Below, in pieces: positions 1,703-43,362 of a DNA stretch of 48,000 bases. The notes beneath the pieces were generated by a model. The model had not been told where the DNA came from and did no database searches. It saw only the letters and a program-made list of their open reading frames with translations. Each line of letters starts with the position of its first letter. Positions within the stretch are counted from its first letter, which is position 1. The DNA lies in contig NZ_SMAF01000024.1 of assembly GCF_004343305.1 (NCBI RefSeq), positions 1-48,000 on the forward strand, in the 5' to 3' direction. Source of the DNA: Pseudofulvimonas gallinarii. GTDB taxonomy: Bacteria; Pseudomonadota; Gammaproteobacteria; Xanthomonadales; UBA2363. The position numbers and the translations under genes were made by a program.

Positions 1703-4700
1703 TTACTGGACCGGGATATCACGCCAGCCGCTGCGGCGACGGATGGGCACACCATTGATCCGCGTGCCCATCACGGCCATTACGCCCGAACTAGGATCAA
1801 TGAACGATGTCAGGTCGGCCGGACCATTTCGCAGCTCGCCAACCTGATTCAAGGGACCGTCAACAAATGCACCGCCGCCGGCCGAGAATGAACCATCATC
1901 ATTCGCCGCACCTGGGAAGGCGAATCCGCCGGTCAGCGCCGACAGCACGTACACCGCTGAATTTCCCTGGGGCGAGCAAGGCTCGTCGGAAGGGATGTAG
2001 CTACCGATCGCGACGATGTTGCTGGAGAAACTCACCGGCAAGCTCATGTCGATCACACGTTCGCCATCCACTACACCACCGGGTGCGCCGGGATTTCCGA
2101 GCAGGATGTACCAGCCGCGCCGATTCTGTGGGATGGGGCGGGTCCGGTCCATGCTGATGGTGCCATCTGCGCGCACGCTTACCGTCTGCTCCACCAGACT
2201 TGCGAGTGTAATGGGATAGGACGCGCAGCCCGGGCCACATTCGCGAATGCCGTAGATGGCTTGGCGCGGAATCTCGGTTTCACGGTCATGGTCCTCCAGA
2301 TACTTGCCGGTACCTACAACCGCGATCATCTCACCAGTCGTCGGATCCGCGAACAGGCTCGGCCCGGATGTAATGGGTCGCGTGTTTGAACCGGTGAACA
2401 TGCGGTCAACACGCGCGCCACCCACATCGCTCCAGCCCCGACCCTTGAAGTCGATACGGAAAAGATTCCCGTTAAGGTCGCCTGCGACTGCAAAATCCAG
2501 CTCGTAGTCGAGCTCGTAGTCCGCCAATTGAACGGTGGCAAGACCACGAGCACCGGCCACCGGAATTCCAACGGTCTGCCCATCGGAAATCCGGATGACG
2601 AACACCATACCGTCACTGTCGCCTCCAGGAACAAAGTGTGTGTCAGGCCGCTCGTTAGGCAAATTGCGGGTGGCGTAATCGAAACGCGCTTCACTGTTGT
2701 AGCCCGACGGAACTACAGCAACCCAGGTTCCGTCACTCAGGCGATAGACGTTTGGTCGACCATATGTATACCCGAGATGAGCATGACCCTCGTCTGTGAA
2801 TTCCCACAGAACCCTGGGATTCTCCGGCTCGGTAATATCCAGGGCATACACGCCCTGACCGCCCAAGCCAAGCGTACCAATCAGCACGGTGCGCCATTGG
2901 TCATTGATATAGACATCATGATCGATGGGCGTGTTGTTCACGAAGGGAACGAACTGGTAGTCGGGTGACGTCAGGCGCGCGAGATTGGGGACAAGGCGAT
3001 TCGGGATGAATGCCCAAGATTCACGCCCGGTTTCGGCCTCGAACGCATGAAGCATGCCGTCATTGGCACCAACATATAGCATCGGCAGTCGACGCTGGTG
3101 TGTGCGTCGGAAATCCTCATACGCACTTCCCCCCTCGGCAAAGCCGACGCGGCCACGATAACCGAAGCGCGGAGCGCTGACGCTGATAAGACTGGAACCA
3201 ATGATCGGTCCCAGAAGGGAATCCCGACTGCGGAGCACACCACCATTCTGCTGTTCATCACTTCGATTGCCCCGAATCCAATCCACTCGTCTCTGGCCAA
3301 GCGAATCTTCGGAGTTGCTCATTGGATTGATGCTCAGCCAAGCACGTTGGTCAGCACTCAAGTTCCCCCAACTGAACTCGGTCTGGCTGGCCGGGCCTGA
3401 GCCCGCCGTATTCGTCAGGATTCGGCGAGATCCGGGAGTGCGGGATGTCAACTGCTCGCCGGCACTGAGCGACCACTCCATTACGTCCGTGGGCTCTCCT
3501 GTTTCTATATTGACTGCTCGAGCAATAACATCACCACTCCAGCGCCCGGTGTCATAGGAAGCCTCGTACATCACCGCATCACTTCTGAGGAATGATGTCG
3601 ATCCGGCGCTGCCGACAACACCTTGGCGTCGACTGATATTGTCCATGATCGCCGACAACGCATTGACGAGTTCCTGTGGGTTATTGGCACTGAGGAACGA
3701 ACCGCGACTGTTAACGGCCGCATGCCATGCGTCATCAATGGCGGATGAGGTGTCTGCCCGCGCACCCGGCCACTGAATTTCGCCCCGACGTAGCGCGCGC
3801 AAAGTCGCGTCGTCGTTTGTCAGCGTCGACCCGGCACCAAACGTCACCATAAAATTTACCATGCGCTGCCAGTTGGCAGGGTCATTAGCCGGGTTGAAAT
3901 AGATCTCGTCCTCAGCCGTAGCGCCACTGACGATACCGGTTCGACGATCTCCAATATGGCTGGGGACGTTATTCTCAAGAGTATCGCGAAGATCTCTCGC
4001 GTAATAATACATAGCCAAATCTGCGAGATTTGGGACTGTATTATTACGCTGCGATTGATTGAAATAGATTGCGGCAGCGTTCCCCTGGACAATCCGCCCA
4101 TCCGCCAACACCCGCCCGCTGTCGTCATATTCACCAACACCCGATGGCGCCGAGCCATTCCAGTAACCGTCGGTCATCATGACGTGAAAGTTCTGGCGAC
4201 AAGAGAGCTCACGACCGTAGCCTGCATCCCAATAGGGATTCCTCTCGTTGCTAGAACTACGCTCAAAGAATCGCCCCGCCCGAGCAAAGGTGGCCCGCAT
4301 TGGAGTGCCACCGTTGTACCTCGGTGTGCGGAGCCAGTTGTAGAACGACGTTCGCCAAGACGTATCATCTGTCCCGTCGGCCCGACGTCGCACAAGGGAT
4401 TTGATCTCGGTCGAGGCGGGCAACTGGTTGGTATTGAAATTCTGCCAGGCCACTCGCACCGACTGATCCATGTTCGCTACCGCAGTCGACAGCGCGCTTC
4501 GCGCCGCAAGACTGCGGAAGCGGTAGTAGGAGAACCAGTTGGCGAAGTTCTGCTGGATCGCAGCACTCTGGCTCGCCACGATGCGCACATCACCCGGCGC
4601 ACTGTTACCTACGCAATAAAAGGCGCGCTGATTGGAGCCGCTTGCAACACCACTCGGGAAATTGTCCGTTTTCCACCCTGAGGAGTAGTCAGCACTCTGG

Positions 4701-20741: not shown

Positions 20742-21331
20742 CGGGATCGGATACCGACGGCGCGCGCGCCGGGCCGCTCGACAGCACCGATCATCCGCAT
20801 GATGTGCGGATGACCGCGCAGCAGATGATGCCGCTGCTGTTCGACGAGCTGCGCACGCGCGCGCGCCACGAGCGGCGACGGCTGCGCGCGGGCGAGACCC
20901 TGCAGACCACGGCCCTGGTCCACGAGGCCTACCTGCGGCTCTACCGCAGCCCGTCATGGCAGGGCGAGACGCATTTCCTCAGGGCGGCGGCGCTGGCGAT
21001 GCGACAGATCCTGGTCGACCACGCCCGTCGGAAGCTGGCCGCCAAGCGCGGCGGTGGTGCCGTCGAGTCGCTCGACGAACTGCCCTTCGAACCGCCGGTC
21101 GCCAACGACGAGCAGCTGATCGAGCTGGACGAAGCACTGCAGCGGCTGTCGCAACTGAATCCGCGGCTGACCCACCTGATCGAGTGCCGGTTCTTCGCCG
21201 GCTACTCGGAAGAGGAAACCGCGCGCGTGCTGGACATCTCCGAGCGGACGGTGCGCCGCGACTGGATCAAGGCGAAAGCCTGGCTGTACCAGGCGTTGGC
21301 CGGGGCGCCTCCAGCCGATAACGTTTCCTGA
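20732..21331 (+). CDS. ECF sigma factor of the kinase-linked (TIGR02999/ECF43-like) type
   Basis: 199 residues from a GTG at 20732 overlapping pgl; an internal ATG at 20810 (M27) would give 173. Sigma region 2 is at about 33-105, with L-Q-T-T-A-L-V-H-E-A-Y-L-R-L at 57-70 and the D-H-A-R-R-K-L-A-A-K-R-G-G-G linker at 96-109. Region 4 is at about 130-190, with the helix-turn-helix S-E-E-E-T-A-R-V-L-D-I-S. The acidic D-A-E-D segment of classic ECF factors is replaced by T59-T60. No anti-sigma gene is adjacent; instead a Ser/Thr kinase gene converges and overlaps by 65 bp. In Vibrio parahaemolyticus an ECF factor of this class is activated by kinase phosphorylation. Confidence 0.88.
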   Translation: MSVTGSDTDGARAGPLDSTDHPHDVRMTAQQMMPLLFDELRTRARHERRRLRAGETLQTTALVHEAYLRLYRSPSWQGETHFLRAAALAMRQILVDHARRKLAAKRGGGAVESLDELPFEPPVANDEQLIELDEALQRLSQLNPRLTHLIECRFFAGYSEEETARVLDISERTVRRDWIKAKAWLYQALAGAPPADNVS

Positions 21332-23723
21332 CGTCTGCCGCCTGCGCTGCAAGGCGCGCGCCGGTGGGACCGGACTGCGCGGCGATGGCATCGACGTCCC
21401 CGAGCAAGGCGGTGGCGCGGGCAGCTTCTCCTTCATGCGCGTAGATCTGGGCAAGCGCGAGATTCGCCAGGGCCGTCGCAGGATGGGTCGCACCCAGGTG
21501 ATCCCTCGCCGCCTGCCCCGCCTTCAGTGCGCTGTCCCGCGCCTCGGCAATGCGCCCGGCGCCGAGCTGTGCTTCGGCCAGTCCGCTCAGCGCGGCGATA
21601 TGGAGCATGCTGCCGCTGCCCGCGAACCGCTGGCCCTGCTCGCTCGCTTCCTCCAGCACCGGAATGGCGTCGGGCGCGCGCTCCAGGCGCAGGAGCAGCT
21701 TGCCATAGTTGTTCAACAGCGCCGCCGTCGCCGCCGACGCGCCATAGTTGCGCCGGCGAAGGTCTACCGCCTCGCGCAACAGCGGCTCCGCGGCGAGGAA
21801 GTCGCCGGCCGTCACTTCAAGCGCACCCCAGTTGTTGAGGGTGTTGAGCGCATCCGGCGACTGTTCAAGTTCGATGGCCTGCCAGATGTCGCGGGCGGTG
21901 CGGAACGCCTCGCGCGCGGGCTCGTACTGGCCGAGCGCGAACTTCTGCACGCCGATGTTGTTGTAGAACACGCCAGTCTCGCGATGGCGGATGCCGCTCA
22001 ACTCGATGCGTTCCTGCAGGCCTTCCTGCAGCAGGCGCACGGCACCTTCGGTGTCACCCGCTTCCCTGAGCAGCTGCGCTTCCACCAGGCGGCTGTCCAC
22101 CAGCCTGGAACGCCAGCGTCCGGGGTCGGACTGCCAGAACGCCTGTGCCAGCGCGATCAGTTCGCGGGCGGCAGCGGTGTCGCCAAGGCGAAGCTCCACC
22201 TGCGCCAGGTCGTAACGCGCCGCCGCGATCAGCGACGCGTCCACCGAGCCGGGCTCGGCCTGCGCCAGGCGGCGCAGCAGCGGCGCCGCCGCTTCATAGT
22301 CGTTGAGCAGGAAATACAGTTCGCCCAGCGCATGCAGGGTCGGCGCAGCCGTGGCCGGGTCGCGGGCATAGCCGTCCTGGATGCGCTGCGCGGCCGCATC
22401 CAGCACCTCACTGGCGGTCGTGCCGGCGCCACGCGATTCACCAGCGACGCGGAACATGTGGAAGACCGCCTGCTGGATCGCTTCCAGGCGCGCGCGTTCG
22501 CGCACCGCTTCGTCGCGCTGCCGGGAGGCTTCGCGCTCCTGCACCACTGCCATCGCCAGACCGGTGGCGAGGCTGGCCACCACCACCGTCGTCGCCAAGA
22601 TGGGCAGAAGGTTCCGGCGCAGCCAGCGCCGCACCAGGTAGCCGCGTTCGTGCAGGCGCGCGCGGACGGGCCGATGATCCAGTGCAAGGGCGAGGTCCTT
22701 TTCGAAGGCCTCGATGCTGGCGTAACGCGCTGCCGGATCAAGCGCGAGCGCTTTCCGGAGGATGGCATCGATATCGGCAAGCAGGCCGTGTTCGGCGCGT
22801 GCGATGCCCTCCGCCAGCTTGCCCGACTGCGATACCGCAGCCGGCGCCGCATCGGCGATGCGTGCCATGACGACGGGCGTCGGCAGGCCGGCGGTCCGGC
22901 GGACCGGTTCGCCGGTCACGAGCTTGAAGAGTACGGCGGCCAGGCCGTACACATCGGTTGCCGTGCTGATCGCGCCATCGCGCAACTGTTCCGGCGCCGC
23001 ATAGTCGGGAGACAGGCGCGTCTGCCTGTGGACACCGCCGCCTTCCACCAGGTGGGCGATGCCGAAATCGATCAGGCGTGGCCGACCGGTGGCGTCGACG
23101 AGGATGTTGGACGGCTTGAGATCGCTGTGCACCACCAGCCGGCCGTGGGCATGGGCAAGCGCCGCGGCGACCTGGCGCACCAGCTGGATGCATGAACGCA
23201 GCGGGAGCCGCCGCTGCCTGCAGTATTCGTCAATGGGCAGGCCGTCGACATACTCCATCACCATGAAAGGCCGCTCTGTCGCCAGCAGCCCGCCGTCGAT
23301 CAGGCGCGCGATGCCGGGATGTTCGAGGCTGGCGAGGATCTGGCGCTCGGCGTCGAAGCGCTGCCAGTCGCTGGCGTCGGCGCCCGTGATCACCTTGAGT
23401 GCGCCCCGCTGTTCGAACAGGCCGTCATCGCGCTGCGCGTCATAGACCTCGCCCATGCCGCCACGCCCGATGGCGCGTTCGATCCGCCAGCAGCCGGCGC
23501 GTTCGCCCGGCACCAGCAGCGGTTCGGACTCGTCCTGTCCGGCGGCGGGCGTTTCCAGGAAATCGTCGGCTTCTTCCGCGGCATCAAGCAGGCTGAGGAC
23601 CTGGGCGATGATCGACGGCCCGGAGGACTGGCGTTGCAACCACGCCCGCCGCTCGGCGGCCGGCCGTTCCCAGGCGGCATCGAACAGCGCTTCGACGCGC
23701 TGCCAGGTCTCCCGATCAGTCAT
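21267..23723 (-). CDS. Transmembrane Ser/Thr protein kinase with TPR sensor domain
   Basis: 818 residues from the ATG at 23723 (M-T-D-R-E-T-W). An N-terminal helical segment (1-70) precedes a Hanks-type kinase domain (about 78-350): glycine loop G-R-G-G-M-G at 86-91, Lys110, catalytic loop H-S-D-L-K-P-S-N at 199-206, D-F-G at 219-221, A-P-E at 243-245. The usual Arg of H-R-D is Ser. A single membrane helix lies at about 372-393, followed by a coiled segment and several TPRs to the end, predicted outside the cytoplasm. The 3' end overlaps the ECF sigma gene. It probably phosphorylates that factor. Confidence 0.92.
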   Translation of the reverse strand: MTDRETWQRVEALFDAAWERPAAERRAWLQRQSSGPSIIAQVLSLLDAAEEADDFLETPAAGQDESEPLLVPGERAGCWRIERAIGRGGMGEVYDAQRDDGLFEQRGALKVITGADASDWQRFDAERQILASLEHPGIARLIDGGLLATERPFMVMEYVDGLPIDEYCRQRRLPLRSCIQLVRQVAAALAHAHGRLVVHSDLKPSNILVDATGRPRLIDFGIAHLVEGGGVHRQTRLSPDYAAPEQLRDGAISTATDVYGLAAVLFKLVTGEPVRRTAGLPTPVVMARIADAAPAAVSQSGKLAEGIARAEHGLLADIDAILRKALALDPAARYASIEAFEKDLALALDHRPVRARLHERGYLVRRWLRRNLLPILATTVVVASLATGLAMAVVQEREASRQRDEAVRERARLEAIQQAVFHMFRVAGESRGAGTTASEVLDAAAQRIQDGYARDPATAAPTLHALGELYFLLNDYEAAAPLLRRLAQAEPGSVDASLIAAARYDLAQVELRLGDTAAARELIALAQAFWQSDPGRWRSRLVDSRLVEAQLLREAGDTEGAVRLLQEGLQERIELSGIRHRETGVFYNNIGVQKFALGQYEPAREAFRTARDIWQAIELEQSPDALNTLNNWGALEVTAGDFLAAEPLLREAVDLRRRNYGASAATAALLNNYGKLLLRLERAPDAIPVLEEASEQGQRFAGSGSMLHIAALSGLAEAQLGAGRIAEARDSALKAGQAARDHLGATHPATALANLALAQIYAHEGEAARATALLGDVDAIAAQSGPTGARLAAQAADVRKRYRLEAPRPTPGTARLSP

Positions 23724-24145
23724 CTCTGCGCCCACGCGTTGCCATCCTCCCGGTCCCCGGCGATGTGCAGCATTGCCAAGACGCCCCGACAAGGCAAGGC
23801 GCGCGGGTGTCGCCTGCTGTTTTCATCGGACCCGTTGGCCGGGGAAGTCACGACGCCACGATCGCGCATGAAGCGGCGCGCATACGGACAGGGTTTCGCC
23901 ACCCGAACCCGGTGCGGCGCGCCGCCCCCCGTCCGGCCCGTCCTCCCGCCATCGCAGGCTTTGGCTCGGTTGTCGCGCATCGATTGGCAGGAGGGCCGCC
24001 CGTTTCACCACGTTGGCCGCGGGCCTGAGGCCGGGGCGTGCACGCCTGGCGACCGACCGGCCGGACGTGGTGAGGGCGTTGCTGCCCGTCGCGTGCGCAA
24101 TGCCCCGGGTTCGCGGCGCGAGTATCTGCACCCGGCATGCAGCGG

Positions 24146-24215
24146 CCCGGATGGCGTCGAGATCAAGAAGCGTCCGAAGGGCAACCGCTGGTCGCCAGAT
24201 GCGCCGGCCGACGGC
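24146..24215 (+). pseudogene. petB-derived fragment (cytochrome b, about 24 codons)
   Basis: These 70 bases match the coding strand of petB at 42089-42020 with three mismatches (24171, 24197, 24200), 67 of 70 identical and no gaps. In the reading frame of petB it still encodes P-D-G-V-E-I-K-K-R-P-K-G-N-R-W-S-P, corresponding to about residues 225-248 of cytochrome b. Similarity falls off sharply on both sides, apart from a possible CTGCACC shared about 20 bases upstream. It cannot make cytochrome b. It is best read as a duplicated, non-functional scrap or a recombination footprint. Confidence 0.8.
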
Positions 24216-24227
24216 CCGGACGCTTCC

Positions 24228-24263
24228 GCGGCGGCGAGCGCATCGATCAGGCTTCGCCGCCGC
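24228..24263 (-). terminator. Hairpin downstream of the small secreted protein gene
   Basis: GCGGCGGCGA (24228-24237) and TCGCCGCCGC (24254-24263) form a perfect 10-bp stem with a 16-nt loop, 11 bp past the stop at 24275 on the minus strand. No T-run follows, so it may be an mRNA 3' stabilising hairpin or a Rho-assisted end rather than an intrinsic terminator. Confidence 0.4.
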
Positions 24264-24274
24264 ACGGGGCGCGT

Positions 24275-24763
24275 TCAATCGGCTTCGCGTTCCACGACCA
24301 GGCTGTAGTGCAGATGCCCGTCGGTCGCGACGCCTCGTGCGCCATCCACGGGCGCCGACAGATGCAGAAGCAGCGGCGCCGAGGCATCCGCCGACACCGG
24401 CATCAGGACATACAGGCCGGTGTCGGCCACGGCAGCCGCTTCAGCCTCGCCACGGGCGCCAACCCACTCGCAGGGCCCGGCCAGCGGGTCTTCGCAGACC
24501 GCCGGGCCGGTCACCCACTGCACCACTGCGGTCGGGGCGCCGGCATCGTGGATGACGTGCAGTCGCGCCAGTTCGGCACCGCCGCGGGTGTGGACGCGTG
24601 GATCTTCGCGCACGACCCGCCAGTTGCCCTGCCACGCGCCAGCCGGAATTCCGCCGTCCATTTCGGCCTCGGACAACAGGGTGTGGGCTGACTCCTGCGC
24701 ATGAAGCGCGCCGACGAGGGTCGAAACGGCAAGAACGGCAATCAGTCGCGCGTTCAGGGTCAT
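24275..24763 (-). CDS. Small secreted protein of unknown function
   Basis: 162 residues with a signal peptide (about 1-22, ending A-L-H-A). The mature part is acidic and Ala/Gly-rich, contains one possible disulfide pair (C-E-D-P-L-A-G-P-C, about residues 90-98) and ends V-V-E-R-E-A-D. I do not recognise the family. Its start overlaps the stop of the VWA-apple gene by 4 bp (ATGA), so the two are made together and probably act together outside the cytoplasm. It is followed by a hairpin. Confidence 0.7.
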   Translation of the reverse strand: MTLNARLIAVLAVSTLVGALHAQESAHTLLSEAEMDGGIPAGAWQGNWRVVREDPRVHTRGGAELARLHVIHDAGAPTAVVQWVTGPAVCEDPLAGPCEWVGARGEAEAAAVADTGLYVLMPVSADASAPLLLHLSAPVDGARGVATDGHLHYSLVVEREAD

Positions 24764-25740
24764 TCCCCGGACTCCTCCACCAGGATCAGCTTTTCACCCG
24801 GCTTGATGCCGGCCACCCAGTCCGATCCCTCGGGCTTCAGACGCACGGCAAAGCCGCCACCGAAAAGACGGCAGCGCGGATGGCCGACGAAGAAGCTGCC
24901 GGTGGGCTCGAAGTGCCAGCCCTTGCAGGTCGCGCTGGCGTCGCACTGTGCCTTGCAGTCCTCTGCAGGCTGACCGACTTCGAAGTCCAGGCCGACCGTG
25001 GCGCCAGCGTTCTTGTCCAGCGTGACATCGAGGTCGGGTTCCAGCGCGAACCCGGGCATCCATTCCTGGCCCTCACGCGCGAGGATGGCCGGGTCCGGTG
25101 CGGCCGGCGGCGGTTCCGCCACTGCTACGGACTGCAGCGCCTCGACCAGGGACCGGCCATCGCCGGCGCGCACATAGCGCCCGCCCGTGCTTTCGGCCAG
25201 GCACTGCAGCTGCCGGTGCGCGGCGCTGCCGTCCTGGATGTCGAAGCCGACGACATGGGCGGTGAAATCGACGCCGAGTTCCTCCAGCTCGCGGCCGAGC
25301 GCGCAGGGATCGGCGTTGCAGGTTTCCTCGCCATCGCTGACCAGGATCACGGTCGCCCTGCGCTCCTCGAAGCGCAGGCGCGCGGCGGCTTCACGGACCG
25401 AAGCAGTGATCGGCGTCATGCCCTTCGGCGACAGCGCATTCACCTGGGCGCGCAGCGCGGCCGCATTGAAACCGTCCGCTTCCCTCAGCACCTCGATATC
25501 GGCGCAATCACCCTTGCGCCGGTGGCCGTAGGCCATCAGGCCCAGCGACATGCCCGGCTGCCAGTCCTCGAGCAGGCCGGCGACGGCGTCGCGCGCCAGT
25601 TCGATCTTGGTCCGTCCGTCGATCTGGCCCCACATGGAGCCGGAGGCGTCGAGCACCAGCATGGCCGAACCGGATTCCTGCGCCGAAGCGGGAAATGCGG
25701 CGGCCAGCGCCGACAGGACGAGGAAAGCAGGCAGTTTCAT
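24760..25740 (-). CDS. Secreted VWA-domain protein with C-terminal apple/PAN-like domain
   Basis: 326 residues. Signal peptide about 1-20 (A-S-A-Q). VWA domain about 25-210 with a complete metal-binding site: D31-A-S33-G-S35, a Thr in K-G-M-T-P-I-T, and the S-D-G-E-E-T motif. A Pro/Ala linker follows. The C-terminal region, about 235-305, has four cysteines with the spacing C-K-A-Q-C, C-K-G-W and P-R-C-R-L-F-G, as in PAN/apple domains, which bind proteins or sugars. It is exported and probably adhesive. It is coupled by a 4-bp overlap to the small secreted protein. This domain pairing is uncommon. Confidence 0.83.
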   Translation of the reverse strand: MKLPAFLVLSALAAAFPASAQESGSAMLVLDASGSMWGQIDGRTKIELARDAVAGLLEDWQPGMSLGLMAYGHRRKGDCADIEVLREADGFNAAALRAQVNALSPKGMTPITASVREAAARLRFEERRATVILVSDGEETCNADPCALGRELEELGVDFTAHVVGFDIQDGSAAHRQLQCLAESTGGRYVRAGDGRSLVEALQSVAVAEPPPAAPDPAILAREGQEWMPGFALEPDLDVTLDKNAGATVGLDFEVGQPAEDCKAQCDASATCKGWHFEPTGSFFVGHPRCRLFGGGFAVRLKPEGSDWVAGIKPGEKLILVEESGE

Positions 25741-28069: not shown

Positions 28070-28516
28070 TCAGGGCGCCGGCAGCAGCCGGATGCTGCGT
28101 GCGTCGATGCGGTATTCGACCTGTTCGCCGCTGACCTCGTCCGGGTCGCGACCACCATCCTCGGCGAGATGCTTCGCGAACGCCTCGCTCAGCGTGCGCT
28201 TGCCGAGCCGGCCGAAGACCACTGCCTCACCCTGGAAATCCCGGGGCAGGAAAAAACGGTGCCCGGTGAAGACGCGCGCATGGCGGTCGCCTTCGGCCAG
28301 CACCAGCCAGCAGCCGCGGTTCTGGCAGACCTCGGTGACGCGCCCCTCGAACTTGCCATAGCGACCCGTCCAGGTGCTGTCGTTGTCCAGCGCGGCGCCA
28401 ATGCCGATGGGCCGGCCCAGCGGCATGTCCTCGCCGTGCTGCTCCGCCGTCTGCGCCATTGCCAGTCCACCGGCACAGACCAGCGCTGCCACCGTCATCA
28501 CACGCCACTGCTTCAT
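28070..28516 (-). CDS. DUF4920-type secreted protein
   Basis: 148 residues from the ATG at 28516 with a signal peptide (about 1-22, ending A-M-A). The mature protein contains W-T-G-R-Y-G-K-F-E-G-R-V-T-E-V-C-Q-N-R-G-C-W, with the C-x4-C-W pattern of DUF4920, a beta-rich domain related to OB-type folds in which the cysteines may bind a metal. The biochemical role is unknown. It lies 15 bp upstream of MAPEG and is divergent from lgt. Confidence 0.8.
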   Translation of the reverse strand: MKQWRVMTVAALVCAGGLAMAQTAEQHGEDMPLGRPIGIGAALDNDSTWTGRYGKFEGRVTEVCQNRGCWLVLAEGDRHARVFTGHRFFLPRDFQGEAVVFGRLGKRTLSEAFAKHLAEDGGRDPDEVSGEQVEYRIDARSIRLLPAP

Positions 28517-40740: not shown

Positions 40741-41499
40741 TCAATGCACGTCCTTCCAGTACTCCTGCTTGAGCAGCCAGGCGATCAGGGTGAACAGTGC
40801 AAGGTAGAGCAGCACCCACACGCCGATGGCCTGGCGCTGGAGGATTGCCGGCTCGGCCGCGTATTCGAGGAAGGTGACGAGGTCGCGCACGGCGGCATCG
40901 TACTCGGCCGGGCTGAGCAGGCCGGGCGTGGTCAGCTCGAGGCTTTCCACCGCCGGGCTCGCGCCGGCTTCCTTGGCTTCACCGTAATGCGCCGACTGGC
41001 TGCCCTGCAGCTCCCACAGCACGTGCGGCATGCTGGCGTTGGCGAGGATGGTGTTGTTCCACCCGGTCGCCGACGTCGGGTCGACGTAGAACGACTTCAG
41101 GTAGTTGTACACCCAGTCCACGCCCCGCGACCGCGCGCTCAGCGACAGGTCCGGCGGCGCCTTGCCGAAGAAGGCCGCGCCATCCTTCGGCGTCATGGCG
41201 GCGTTGATGGTCTCACCGAACTTCGCGGTGTCGGAGAACGCGAGATTCTCCATCACCTGTTCCTCGGTGAGGCCCAGGTCCTCGGCCATGCGCGAATAGC
41301 GCAGGTACTTCAGCGAATGGCAGCCCGCACAGTAGTTCATGTACATGGCGGCGCCACGCTGCAACATGGCCTTGTTGGCGACCTGCGTATTGGCTGGCGC
41401 CAGGCCTTCATGGCCACCCGCGGCGGACACCGAGGCGCTGACCACCAGGCCGAACAGGAGGGACGTGAAACGGCGCATCGGGAAACGTGCCTTAGTCAT
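40741..41499 (-). CDS. petC: Cytochrome c1 of the bc1 complex
   Basis: 252 residues (an ATG at residue 8 is also possible). Signal sequence to about residue 27, then the haem motif C57-A-G-C60-H61, a likely axial Met in N-A-S-M-P-H, and a C-terminal membrane helix (V-W-V-L-L-Y-L-A-L-F-T-L-I-A-W). It passes electrons from the Rieske protein to soluble cytochrome c. The start overlaps the petB stop by 8 bp. Confidence 0.96.
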   Translation of the reverse strand: MTKARFPMRRFTSLLFGLVVSASVSAAGGHEGLAPANTQVANKAMLQRGAAMYMNYCAGCHSLKYLRYSRMAEDLGLTEEQVMENLAFSDTAKFGETINAAMTPKDGAAFFGKAPPDLSLSARSRGVDWVYNYLKSFYVDPTSATGWNNTILANASMPHVLWELQGSQSAHYGEAKEAGASPAVESLELTTPGLLSPAEYDAAVRDLVTFLEYAAEPAILQRQAIGVWVLLYLALFTLIAWLLKQEYWKDVH

Positions 41500-42763
41500 G
41501 CGTGGTCACCCTATCCGGCACCGGCTTGCTCTTCTCGAAGCCGAAGTGCGTATAGACGAACAGGAATACGAAATAACCGAAGTACAGGACGGTCAGCAGG
41601 CGACCGATCTGCGTCTCGACGGGGTCGGTACCCGGGCCGCCGCCGATCTTGCCCAGCCAGACGAAGCTCAGCGCGAAGATGCCGAGCGCGACCTTGAAGG
41701 CGGTTCCACGGTAGCGCCAGGACTTGACCGGGCTGCGGTCCAGCCAGGGCAACAGGAACAGCAGTGCGATCGCCGAGAACATCACGATCACGCCCAGCAG
41801 CTTGTCCGGCACAACGCGGAGCATCGCGTAGTACGGCGTGAAGTACCACACCGGCACGATGTGCTCCGGCGTCACCAGCGGGTCGTAGGGGACGAAGTTG
41901 TCCTTCTCCAGGAACAGGCCACCGAAGGTCGGTTCGAAGAAGATGATGAAGGCGGCGAACATCAGGAAGAAGCCGACGCCCAGCAGGTCCTTGACCGTGT
42001 AGTACGGATGGAACGGAATGCCGTCGGCCGGCGCCTCCGGCGACCAGCGGTTGCCCTTCGGACCCTTCTTGATCTCGACGCCATCCGGGTTGTTGGAGCC
42101 GACCTGGTGCAGTGCGCCCAGGTGCAGCACGACCAGCAGCAGCAGCACCAGCGGCAGCGCGATGACGTGCAGCGCGAAGAAGCGGTTCAGCGTCGCATCC
42201 GAGATCAGGTAGTCACCTCGGATGAACTCGACCAGGCCTTCGCCGATGCCGGGAATGGCACCGAACAGCGAGATGATCACCTGCGCGCCCCAGCCGGACA
42301 TCTGCCCCCACGGCAGCACGTAGCCCATGAAGGCTTCGGCCATCAGCGCCAGGTAGATGAACATGCCGATGACCCACAGCAGCTCGCGCGGCTTCTTGTA
42401 GGAGCCGTACATCAGGCCGCGGAACATGTGCAGGTACACCACGATGAAGAACATCGAGGCGCCGACCGCGTGCATGTAGCGGATCTGCCAGCCCCAGGGC
42501 ACATCACGCATGATGTACTCGACGCTGTTGAACGCCTCCGCGGCGCTCGGCTTGAAGTGCATCGTCAGCCAGATGCCGGTGACGATCTGGTTCACCAGCA
42601 CCAGCAGCGCCAGCGAACCGAAGTAGTACCAGAAGTTGAAATTCTTCGGGGCGTAGTACTCGGATGTATGCGCCTTCATGAAACTGAAGACGGGCAGACG
42701 TTCCTCGATCCAGCCGACCAGGCCCTTCTGCGGCGCGCCGTTGGGATTCGGATAACCGGCCAT
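41492..42763 (-). CDS. petB: Cytochrome b of the bc1 complex
   Basis: 423 residues from the ATG at 42763, which overlaps the petA stop by one base (TGATG). It has eight membrane helices in two parts. Haem-binding histidines are in T-M-H-F-K and R-Y-M-H-A-V and near H-V-I-A-L-P and V-V-L-H-L-G. The Qo-site motif is P-V-W-Y (not P-E-W-Y), a variant known in gammaproteobacteria. It oxidises quinol and pumps protons with PetA and PetC. A 70-bp piece of this gene is duplicated at 24146-24215. Confidence 0.97.
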   Translation of the reverse strand: MAGYPNPNGAPQKGLVGWIEERLPVFSFMKAHTSEYYAPKNFNFWYYFGSLALLVLVNQIVTGIWLTMHFKPSAAEAFNSVEYIMRDVPWGWQIRYMHAVGASMFFIVVYLHMFRGLMYGSYKKPRELLWVIGMFIYLALMAEAFMGYVLPWGQMSGWGAQVIISLFGAIPGIGEGLVEFIRGDYLISDATLNRFFALHVIALPLVLLLLVVLHLGALHQVGSNNPDGVEIKKGPKGNRWSPEAPADGIPFHPYYTVKDLLGVGFFLMFAAFIIFFEPTFGGLFLEKDNFVPYDPLVTPEHIVPVWYFTPYYAMLRVVPDKLLGVIVMFSAIALLFLLPWLDRSPVKSWRYRGTAFKVALGIFALSFVWLGKIGGGPGTDPVETQIGRLLTVLYFGYFVFLFVYTHFGFEKSKPVPDRVTTHD

Positions 42764-43362
42764 CACGCAGCTCCTTCTGGATCAACGCCGATCTCGATCA
42801 GCGTGTCGGACAGGAAGCGATGCGGCGGAACCTGCAGGTTCGTCGGCGCCGGCACACCCGAATAGACGCGACCGGCCAGGTCGAAGCGCGACTTGTGGCA
42901 GGGGCAGAAGAAACCGCCCTTCCATTCCGGATCGAACGGCTGCGGGGTCAGCTCCGGCACGAAGGTCGGCGAGCAGCCCAGGTGGGTGCAGATGCCGACA
43001 TAGATGCCGATTTCCGGACGCTGGGCGCGGAATTCGTTGGCGGCATAGGCGGGCTGCTGGCTGGTGTTCTCCGAGGCCGGGTCGCGCAGGTGGCTGGCCA
43101 GCGTCGGCAGTGCGCTGAGCATTTCCGGCGAACGGCGATAGACCCACACCGGGAGGCCACGCCAGCTCTCGATCATCAGCTGGCCCGGGGCCAGCTTGCT
43201 GATGTCGACACGGACCGGCGCACCCGCAGCCTGCGCCCTGGCGCTGGGCTGCCAGGACTTGATAAAGGGCACGGCCAGAAAGGCCGCCCCGACTCCACCT
43301 ACCACGGCCGTGGTCGCCGTCAGGAACCGTCGCCGGCCCTGATTCACATTGTGTTCCGCCAT
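42763..43362 (-). CDS. petA: Rieske iron-sulfur subunit of the bc1 complex
   Basis: 199 residues. A Tat-type N-terminus (G-R-R-R-F-L-T) leads a membrane anchor at about 15-33. The 2Fe-2S ligands are C125-T-H127-L-G-C130 and C153-P-C155-H156. Escherichia-like soluble insertions are absent. It takes electrons from quinol at the Qo site and passes them to cytochrome c1. It is the first gene of the petABC operon; the promoter region lies between it and the divergent protease gene. Confidence 0.97.
   Translation of the reverse strand: MAEHNVNQGRRRFLTATTAVVGGVGAAFLAVPFIKSWQPSARAQAAGAPVRVDISKLAPGQLMIESWRGLPVWVYRRSPEMLSALPTLASHLRDPASENTSQQPAYAANEFRAQRPEIGIYVGICTHLGCSPTFVPELTPQPFDPEWKGGFFCPCHKSRFDLAGRVYSGVPAPTNLQVPPHRFLSDTLIEIGVDPEGAA

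What the first reader, a model, noticed from the sequence alone, without database searches (positions are those of the whole stretch)
24146..24215. A 70-bp piece of petB lies in a distant intergenic region
67 of 70 bases match petB (24146-24215 with 42089-42020). The copy keeps the petB frame for 23 codons and then stops matching. A non-mobile core gene fragment 18 kb away is unexpected. It could be a duplication scrap, a recombination footprint, or a functional antisense/regulatory element.
Basis: seen in the sequence. Interest (0 to 1): 0.6.

Follow-up and report, generated by a model that had tools for sequence, protein, structure and literature searches.

The report
Stray 69-base scrap of petB
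A short stretch of the respiratory gene petB was copied by accident into the space between two other genes, most likely when DNA copying briefly jumped to the wrong place, and nothing suggests that the scrap does anything.

Summary
Window 24146-24215 (+) matches petB (42089-42020) at 67 of 70 bases, and no third copy was found in the genome. The copy lies between a Ser/Thr kinase gene and a small ORF. It derives from this lineage's own petB. No second scrap was recognised in 397 other genomes of the order, two of them genus mates (limits in the report).

That is the footprint of a templated insertion of 69 bp anchored by microhomology. The two differences that arose in the copy (24171, 24197) each complete a perfect 9-10-nt inverted repeat with nearby flank, as quasipalindrome template switching would do. 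The third (24200) is probably a later change in petB.

I found no sigma-70-like promoter, no unusual RNA fold and no conservation, so a trans-antisense role is not supported. An assembly artefact is unlikely, since the longest exact shared word is 25 bases. Ordinary mutational debris, with unusually legible junctions.

The parts
24146..24215 (+). copy of a petB stretch (23 codons in frame), 67/70 identical to petB
   Evidence: alignment; (E 5.4e-26 in own genome)
42020..42089 (-). source segment inside petB (cytochrome b of the bc1 complex)
   Evidence: petB identified by Pfam PF00033/PF00032
24143..24151 (+). left copy of the 9-bp direct repeat CGGCCCGGA; its last 6 bases (CCCGGA) are shared with petB
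   Evidence: family D4
24212..24220 (+). right copy of the 9-bp direct repeat CGGCCCGGA; its first 4 bases (CGGC) are shared with petB
   Evidence: family D4
24167..24176 (+). GAAGCGTCCG, perfect inverted repeat with 24217-24226; made perfect by the copy-specific C at 24171
   Evidence: I5
24217..24226 (+). partner arm CGGACGCTTC in the right flank
   Evidence: I5
24190..24198 (+). GGTCGCCAG, perfect inverted repeat with 24046-24054; completed by the copy-specific A at 24197
   Evidence: inside I1
24046..24054 (+). partner arm CTGGCGACC in the left flank
   Evidence: inside I1
41492..42766 (-). petB, intact cytochrome b gene (424 aa)
21267..23720 (-). Ser/Thr protein kinase with TPR repeats, downstream neighbour of the scrap
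   Evidence: PF00069, PF13424; start inferred
24275..24763 (-). small ORF without Pfam or NCBIfam match, found in 3 of 21 genomes, all of the genus; upstream neighbour

Best explanation
The 70-bp match is a non-functional scrap of the organism's own petB, placed between two genes by a microhomology-anchored templated insertion (template switch). Proposed course: DNA synthesis was interrupted at CGGCCCGGA. The 3' end carrying ...CCCGGA annealed to CCCGGA in petB and copied about 60 bases. It then switched back through CGGC to the original site. The result is 69 extra bases in inverted orientation to petB and a 9-bp direct repeat at the edges. The two changes that arose in the copy were probably made by local inverted-repeat (quasipalindrome) template switching, either in the same event or later. 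Shown: the match, its own-lineage origin, the direct repeat and its overlap with both petB edges, and the perfect inverted repeats at the two changed bases; no second scrap was recognised in the relatives searched. Inferred: the empty target site, the order of steps, the enzymes, and the lack of function.
For: Own-lineage origin: of the bases where own petB differs from G002 petB the copy shares own petB's base at 7 of 8, and against G001 at 8 of 10. Identity to own petB is 96%, against 88% (G002) and 84% (G001); over the full 70 bases the best place listed elsewhere in the order has 91%, and short partial matches reach 94% over 49 bases. Junctions: 9-bp direct repeat 24143-24151 / 24212-24220. 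With real window flanks drawn at random, 31 of 20,002 trials gave a repeat of 9 bp or more across both edges. Changes: the two copy-specific changes complete 10-nt and 9-nt perfect inverted repeats with flank within 100 bp. With 100-bp flanks, 1 of 3,771 real flank pairs from this genome did as well for these two and 12 of 3,771 for all three; 2 of 456 in the window alone for all three; 0 of 2,000 and 3 of 2,000 shuffled flanks. No second scrap recognised. No sign of function. No Ku match, so classical NHEJ is less likely; a ComEC-family gene is present.
Against: The empty site was not seen: the intergenic flanks have no DNA match in G001 or G002, so the 9-bp repeat is read as a footprint without an ancestor to compare. 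CGGCCCGGA is a common word here (6 in the window, 1.5 expected). The inverted-repeat test was devised after the repeats were seen, and 100 bp is the most favourable of the four flank lengths tried. For 24197 a random single change does as well with probability 0.70, 0.014, 0.048 and 0.057 at 50, 100, 150 and 250 bp, so with 50-bp flanks only 24171 stands out. One group II intron reverse transcriptase exists in the genome, so an RNA-mediated copy is not strictly excluded.
Confidence: 0.8

Rival explanations
1. Trans-acting antisense element. Minus-strand transcription from the 24275-24763 ORF through the kinase leader would carry up to 70 nt nearly complementary to petB mRNA and could lower petB expression.
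For: Orientation fits: the two neighbouring genes are on the minus strand and the copy's plus strand is petB sense, so a minus-strand transcript is antisense to petB. Two exact 25-base stretches are shared with petB.
Against: No sigma-70-like site in 23600-24900 (other promoter types not covered). No RNA structure beyond shuffles (z 0.46 minus, 0.17 plus). No similar copy in the two genus mates, none recognised in the order sample. No Rfam match there at the gathering threshold.
Confidence: 0.05
2. Uptake of a petB piece as free DNA (natural transformation) with short-patch double illegitimate recombination, rather than a template switch on the cell's own petB.
For: A ComEC-family gene is present (one gene does not show competence). 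Short-patch integration (SPDIR) is named as a transformation-linked process (passage of PMC7192050).
Against: No evidence specific to it. The sequence cannot tell a copied from a taken-up strand; it says only that the donor was own-lineage petB.
Confidence: 0.2
3. Retro-copy: a petB mRNA fragment was reverse transcribed and inserted.
For: One RT of group II intron type in the genome.
Against: The RT is on another contig (C9). The 6- and 4-bp microhomologies explain both ends without it.
Confidence: 0.05
4. Assembly artefact joining petB reads into the intergenic region.
For: Draft genome in 57 contigs; no reads available here.
Against: Three private differences. Longest exact shared word 25 bases, shorter than usual assembly k-mers (general knowledge).
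Confidence: 0.02

Closest known systems
Microhomology-mediated template switching (long-distance template switch / MMBIR) in E. coli
   Same: Junctions with a few bases of microhomology, more than one switch, inverted orientation, no long homology. PMC3161906 (12 of 23 matching passages seen) describes such junctions and the models.
   Different: There: experimentally recovered rearrangements, most switches covering tens of kilobases. Here: one 69-bp insert inferred from a genome, no ancestor in hand.
[quoted passage not shown]
   Same: Short segment, illegitimate junctions at both ends (named in PMC7192050, one passage seen). The intragenomic origin and microhomology details are recalled (Harms et al. 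2016, not seen).
   Different: SPDIR as recalled replaces a recipient segment; here the direct repeat points to a net insertion.
Quasipalindrome-associated template-switch mutation
   Same: An imperfect inverted repeat becomes more perfect (abstract and passages of PMC7202029), as at 24171 and 24197.
   Different: Arms here are 9-10 nt and 40-135 nt apart, shorter and further apart than the engineered 18-bp quasipalindrome reporters described there.

Membership tests
Microhomology-anchored templated insertion (template switch / MMBIR-like) | inserted segment copied from elsewhere in the same genome | tested here: met
   67/70 to own petB; shares own-lineage bases at 7 of 8 and 8 of 10 diagnostic sites
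Microhomology-anchored templated insertion (template switch / MMBIR-like) | microhomology of a few bases at both junctions | tested here: met
   9-bp direct repeat overlapping the match by 6 and 4 bases; 31 of 20,002 random trials. Rests on the inferred target
Microhomology-anchored templated insertion (template switch / MMBIR-like) | empty target site in a relative | tested here: inconclusive
   no DNA match of the intergenic flanks in G001 or G002
SPDIR | replacement of a resident segment by the patch | not testable with these tools
   no ancestor sequence; the direct repeat favours net insertion; feature recalled
Quasipalindrome-associated mutation | the change increases inverted-repeat perfection | tested here: met
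   24171: longest arm 4 to 10 nt; 24197: 6 to 9 nt (100-bp flanks); 1 of 3,771 real flank pairs as good. Test devised after the repeats were seen; at 50-bp flanks 24197 does not gain (6 to 5)
Trans-antisense regulatory RNA | promoter near the element | tested here: not met
   0 sigma-70-like sites in 23600-24900; other promoter types not covered
Trans-antisense regulatory RNA | conservation in relatives | tested here: not met
   none in 2 genus mates; none recognised in the 397 other order genomes, which include those two, with the limits stated in the report
Trans-antisense regulatory RNA | expression and effect on petB | not testable with these tools
   needs RNA-seq and deletion
Mobile or interspersed repeat | several copies in the genome | tested here: not met
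   only petB itself matches; no match in plasmid or phage collections at E 1e-5
Diversity-generating retroelement repeat | differences at template adenines | tested here: not met
   differences are C/G, A/G, T/G (copy/petB); the one RT found is of group II intron type. Feature recalled

The most novel reading that the evidence does not exclude
The scrap is a newly born trans-antisense segment. Carried in the leader of the kinase mRNA, it could pair with petB mRNA and tie cytochrome bc1 synthesis to kinase-operon transcription, showing how a random template switch can create a regulatory RNA link in one step.
Probability: 0.04. Interest if true: 0.6.

Novelty: new member of a known kind. Interest (0 to 1): 0.15.

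Why it matters
It is a clean natural example of a small templated insertion in a bacterium: source, target repeat, microhomology and follow-up inverted-repeat edits can all be read from one genome. It says nothing new about petB function. If sister strains were sequenced, the site could show how such scraps arise and decay.

Tried and rejected
Second petB-like hits in other genomes: five of the 398 genomes had two matches, G000 and four others. In G235 the second is a full petB paralogue. In G246 and G390 it lies in a long open frame reading RVEINKGPQGTLRGRNALAG, which I recognise from memory as a TonB-receptor plug motif; no petB protein match there. The G246 piece does align with that genome's own petB (48 of 59, 4 gaps, E 3e-8 in a 3-kb comparison) and the G390 piece at 28 of 33; I read both as chance likeness of two coding motifs. 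In G295 (84% over 42 bases) the piece has no match to that genome's own petB and lies in long open frames. I take none as a second scrap.

Census for the rate of such scraps: 774,000 bases of own-genome stretches plus the window (822,000 of 3,452,107) gave 103 pairs, 11 of them 40-300 bp at 88% or more. Besides petB they were 3 contig-start pairs, 1 groEL-tail pair, 1 pair in a domain I recognise as GGDEF (recalled motif), 1 pair from an interspersed repeat with 15 matches, 1 local pair in L154 (one overlapping frame scanned, no Pfam match), and 3 local pairs in L179 that I did not examine. Among the pairs I examined, the petB piece is the only internal piece of a core gene found far from its source. 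Pairs with one member outside the sample were invisible.

Structured-nucleic-acid idea: RNA folds and a DNA fold (z -0.48) no better than shuffles. Phage or plasmid carriage: no match; one search used one exact 21-base pattern in viral contigs. Base composition around the copy is unremarkable. Literature: (the SPDIR phrase) found nothing; one search listed 15 of 22 papers and one, none the primary SPDIR paper; others (15 of 30 listed; 8 of 77 listed) gave the template-switch background, for bacterial gene-fragment scraps, listed one unrelated review. I make no claim that the phenomenon is unpublished.

The change at 24200 was first counted with the other two in the inverted-repeat test. G002 petB carries the same T there, so it is more simply a later change in own petB, and I rest the argument on 24171 and 24197. 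The other genus mate, G001, has a C there.

Full report
What is there. The window lies in a 3.45-Mb, 57-contig genome. The 70 bases at 24146-24215 match 42089-42020 in petB at 67 positions. The match keeps 23 petB codons and stops at both ends. In the whole genome the intergenic region 23721-24277 matches only itself and petB (40 of 95 first-look candidates scored). petB is intact and sits in a Rieske-cytochrome b-cytochrome c1 cluster, which is kept in both genus mates. The copy sits in about 555 bp between a Ser/Thr kinase-TPR gene and a small ORF of unknown function, both on the minus strand. In the stretches fetched from the genus mates (20 kb and 8.8 kb) the small ORF has a relative at 46-47% identity, but the kinase is not beside it.

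Origin. The copy comes from this lineage's petB. It is 96% identical to own petB, 88% and 84% to the petBs of G002 and G001. Over the full 70 bases the best place listed in the other order genomes has 91%; shorter partial matches reach 94% over 49 bases. At sites where own petB differs from the genus mates, the copy carries own petB's base at 7 of 8 (G002) and 8 of 10 (G001). Of the three differences, 24200 (GAT in the copy, GAG in petB) is shared with G002 petB, so petB itself probably changed after the copy was made. 24171 (Gly to Arg codon) and 24197 (silent) arose in the copy. Against G001 there is no site where copy and relative agree against petB.

Junctions. The copy is flanked by a perfect 9-bp direct repeat, CGGCCCGGA, at 24143-24151 and 24212-24220. 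The left repeat shares its last six bases with petB (CCCGGA) and the right repeat shares its first four (CGGC). Removing one repeat and the insert leaves a continuous site...GCATGCAG[CGGCCCGGA]CGCTTCC.... With flanks drawn from the window at random, a direct repeat of 9 bp or more spanning both edges appeared in 31 of 20,002 trials. The word is common in the window (6 against 1.5 expected), so this is good but not overwhelming support. The simplest reading is a strand that left the site at CCCGGA, copied about 60 bases of petB, and returned at CGGC.

Edits inside the copy. The C at 24171 makes GAAGCGTCCG (24167-24176) a perfect inverted repeat of CGGACGCTTC (24217-24226) in the right flank. 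The A at 24197 makes GGTCGCCAG (24190-24198) a perfect inverted repeat of CTGGCGACC (24046-24054) in the left flank. With petB's bases the longest arms would be 4 and 6 nt. With 100-bp flanks, 1 of 3,771 real flank pairs of this genome matched both changes as well and 12 of 3,771 matched all three; 2 of 456 in the window alone for all three. Shuffled flanks, 2,000 each: for the two changes 17, 0, 0 and 0, and for all three 31, 3, 9 and 21, at 50, 100, 150 and 250 bp. Random single changes do as well as 24171 with probability 0.005, 0.005, 0.019 and 0.019, and as well as 24197 with 0.70, 0.014, 0.048 and 0.057, at the same four lengths. So 100 bp is the most favourable length, and the test was designed after I saw the repeats; I take it as suggestive. 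Making an imperfect inverted repeat more perfect is the signature described for quasipalindrome template switching (PMC7202029, abstract and passages).

Relatives. Neither genus mate has the copy; their single matches are petB itself. In the order sample, which includes them, 217 of 398 genomes, own included, had a match and five had two. The four others with two were followed up and I read none as a petB scrap. Limits: 181 genomes had no match at all, so petB there is too far from the query for this search. Only two candidates per genome were scored. Beyond the genus mates and those four I did not check that each single match lies in petB.

Function. No sigma-70-like site in 23600-24900; one terminator-like site at 23803-23817 on the plus strand, against 0.5 expected. 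The RNA fold of 24030-24275 is no better than shuffles on either strand. Rfam at its gathering threshold reports only a tRNA near the window's start. A minus-strand transcript of the kinase leader would be antisense to petB; that stays possible but has no support.

Machinery. No Ku match, so classical bacterial NHEJ is less likely. A ComEC-family match is present, so uptake-linked short-patch recombination remains open. One reverse transcriptase is present, of group II intron type. Template-switch models for E. coli with microhomology junctions are described in PMC3161906 (passages). SPDIR is named in PMC7192050 (one passage); its primary paper was not found in the library and its details are recalled.

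Verdict. A real, own-lineage, microhomology-anchored scrap with readable junctions and probably local template-switch edits; ordinary mutational debris with no sign of function. Low interest.

Noticed in passing
L177 (own genome C23) 211-324 and 2342-2458; also C49:22-138: The last ~117 bp of a cpn60/groEL gene, stop codon included, occurs three times (the other two 94% and 97% like the C23:2342 copy); between the two on C23 lies a Fic-family gene. It could be attachment-site duplication by an island that integrates at the groEL 3' end.
   Followed up: partly
L145 19152-19205 (own genome C1:119152-119205) and 14 further places: A ~53-bp interspersed repeat with 15 matches in the genome, itself included, at 87-100%, some in pairs about 140-150 bp apart (C16, C30, C34): a REP-like family.
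   Followed up: partly
L140, L156, L179 first ~150 bases (starts of own contigs C1, C5, C28): Contig starts share 94-147 bp at 99-100%, probably a repeat at which the assembly broke.
   Followed up: no
own genome (G000): 34 matches to the window's Ser/Thr kinase-TPR protein in one 3.45-Mb genome, 36 and 38 in its genus mates; the other 18 genomes of that call range from 0 to 56, so a large kinase set is shared by part of the order.
   Followed up: no
window 3999-4049 and 28401-28426: Self-complementary stretches (85% over 52 and 92% over 26 aligned bases) in the window self-comparison.
   Followed up: no
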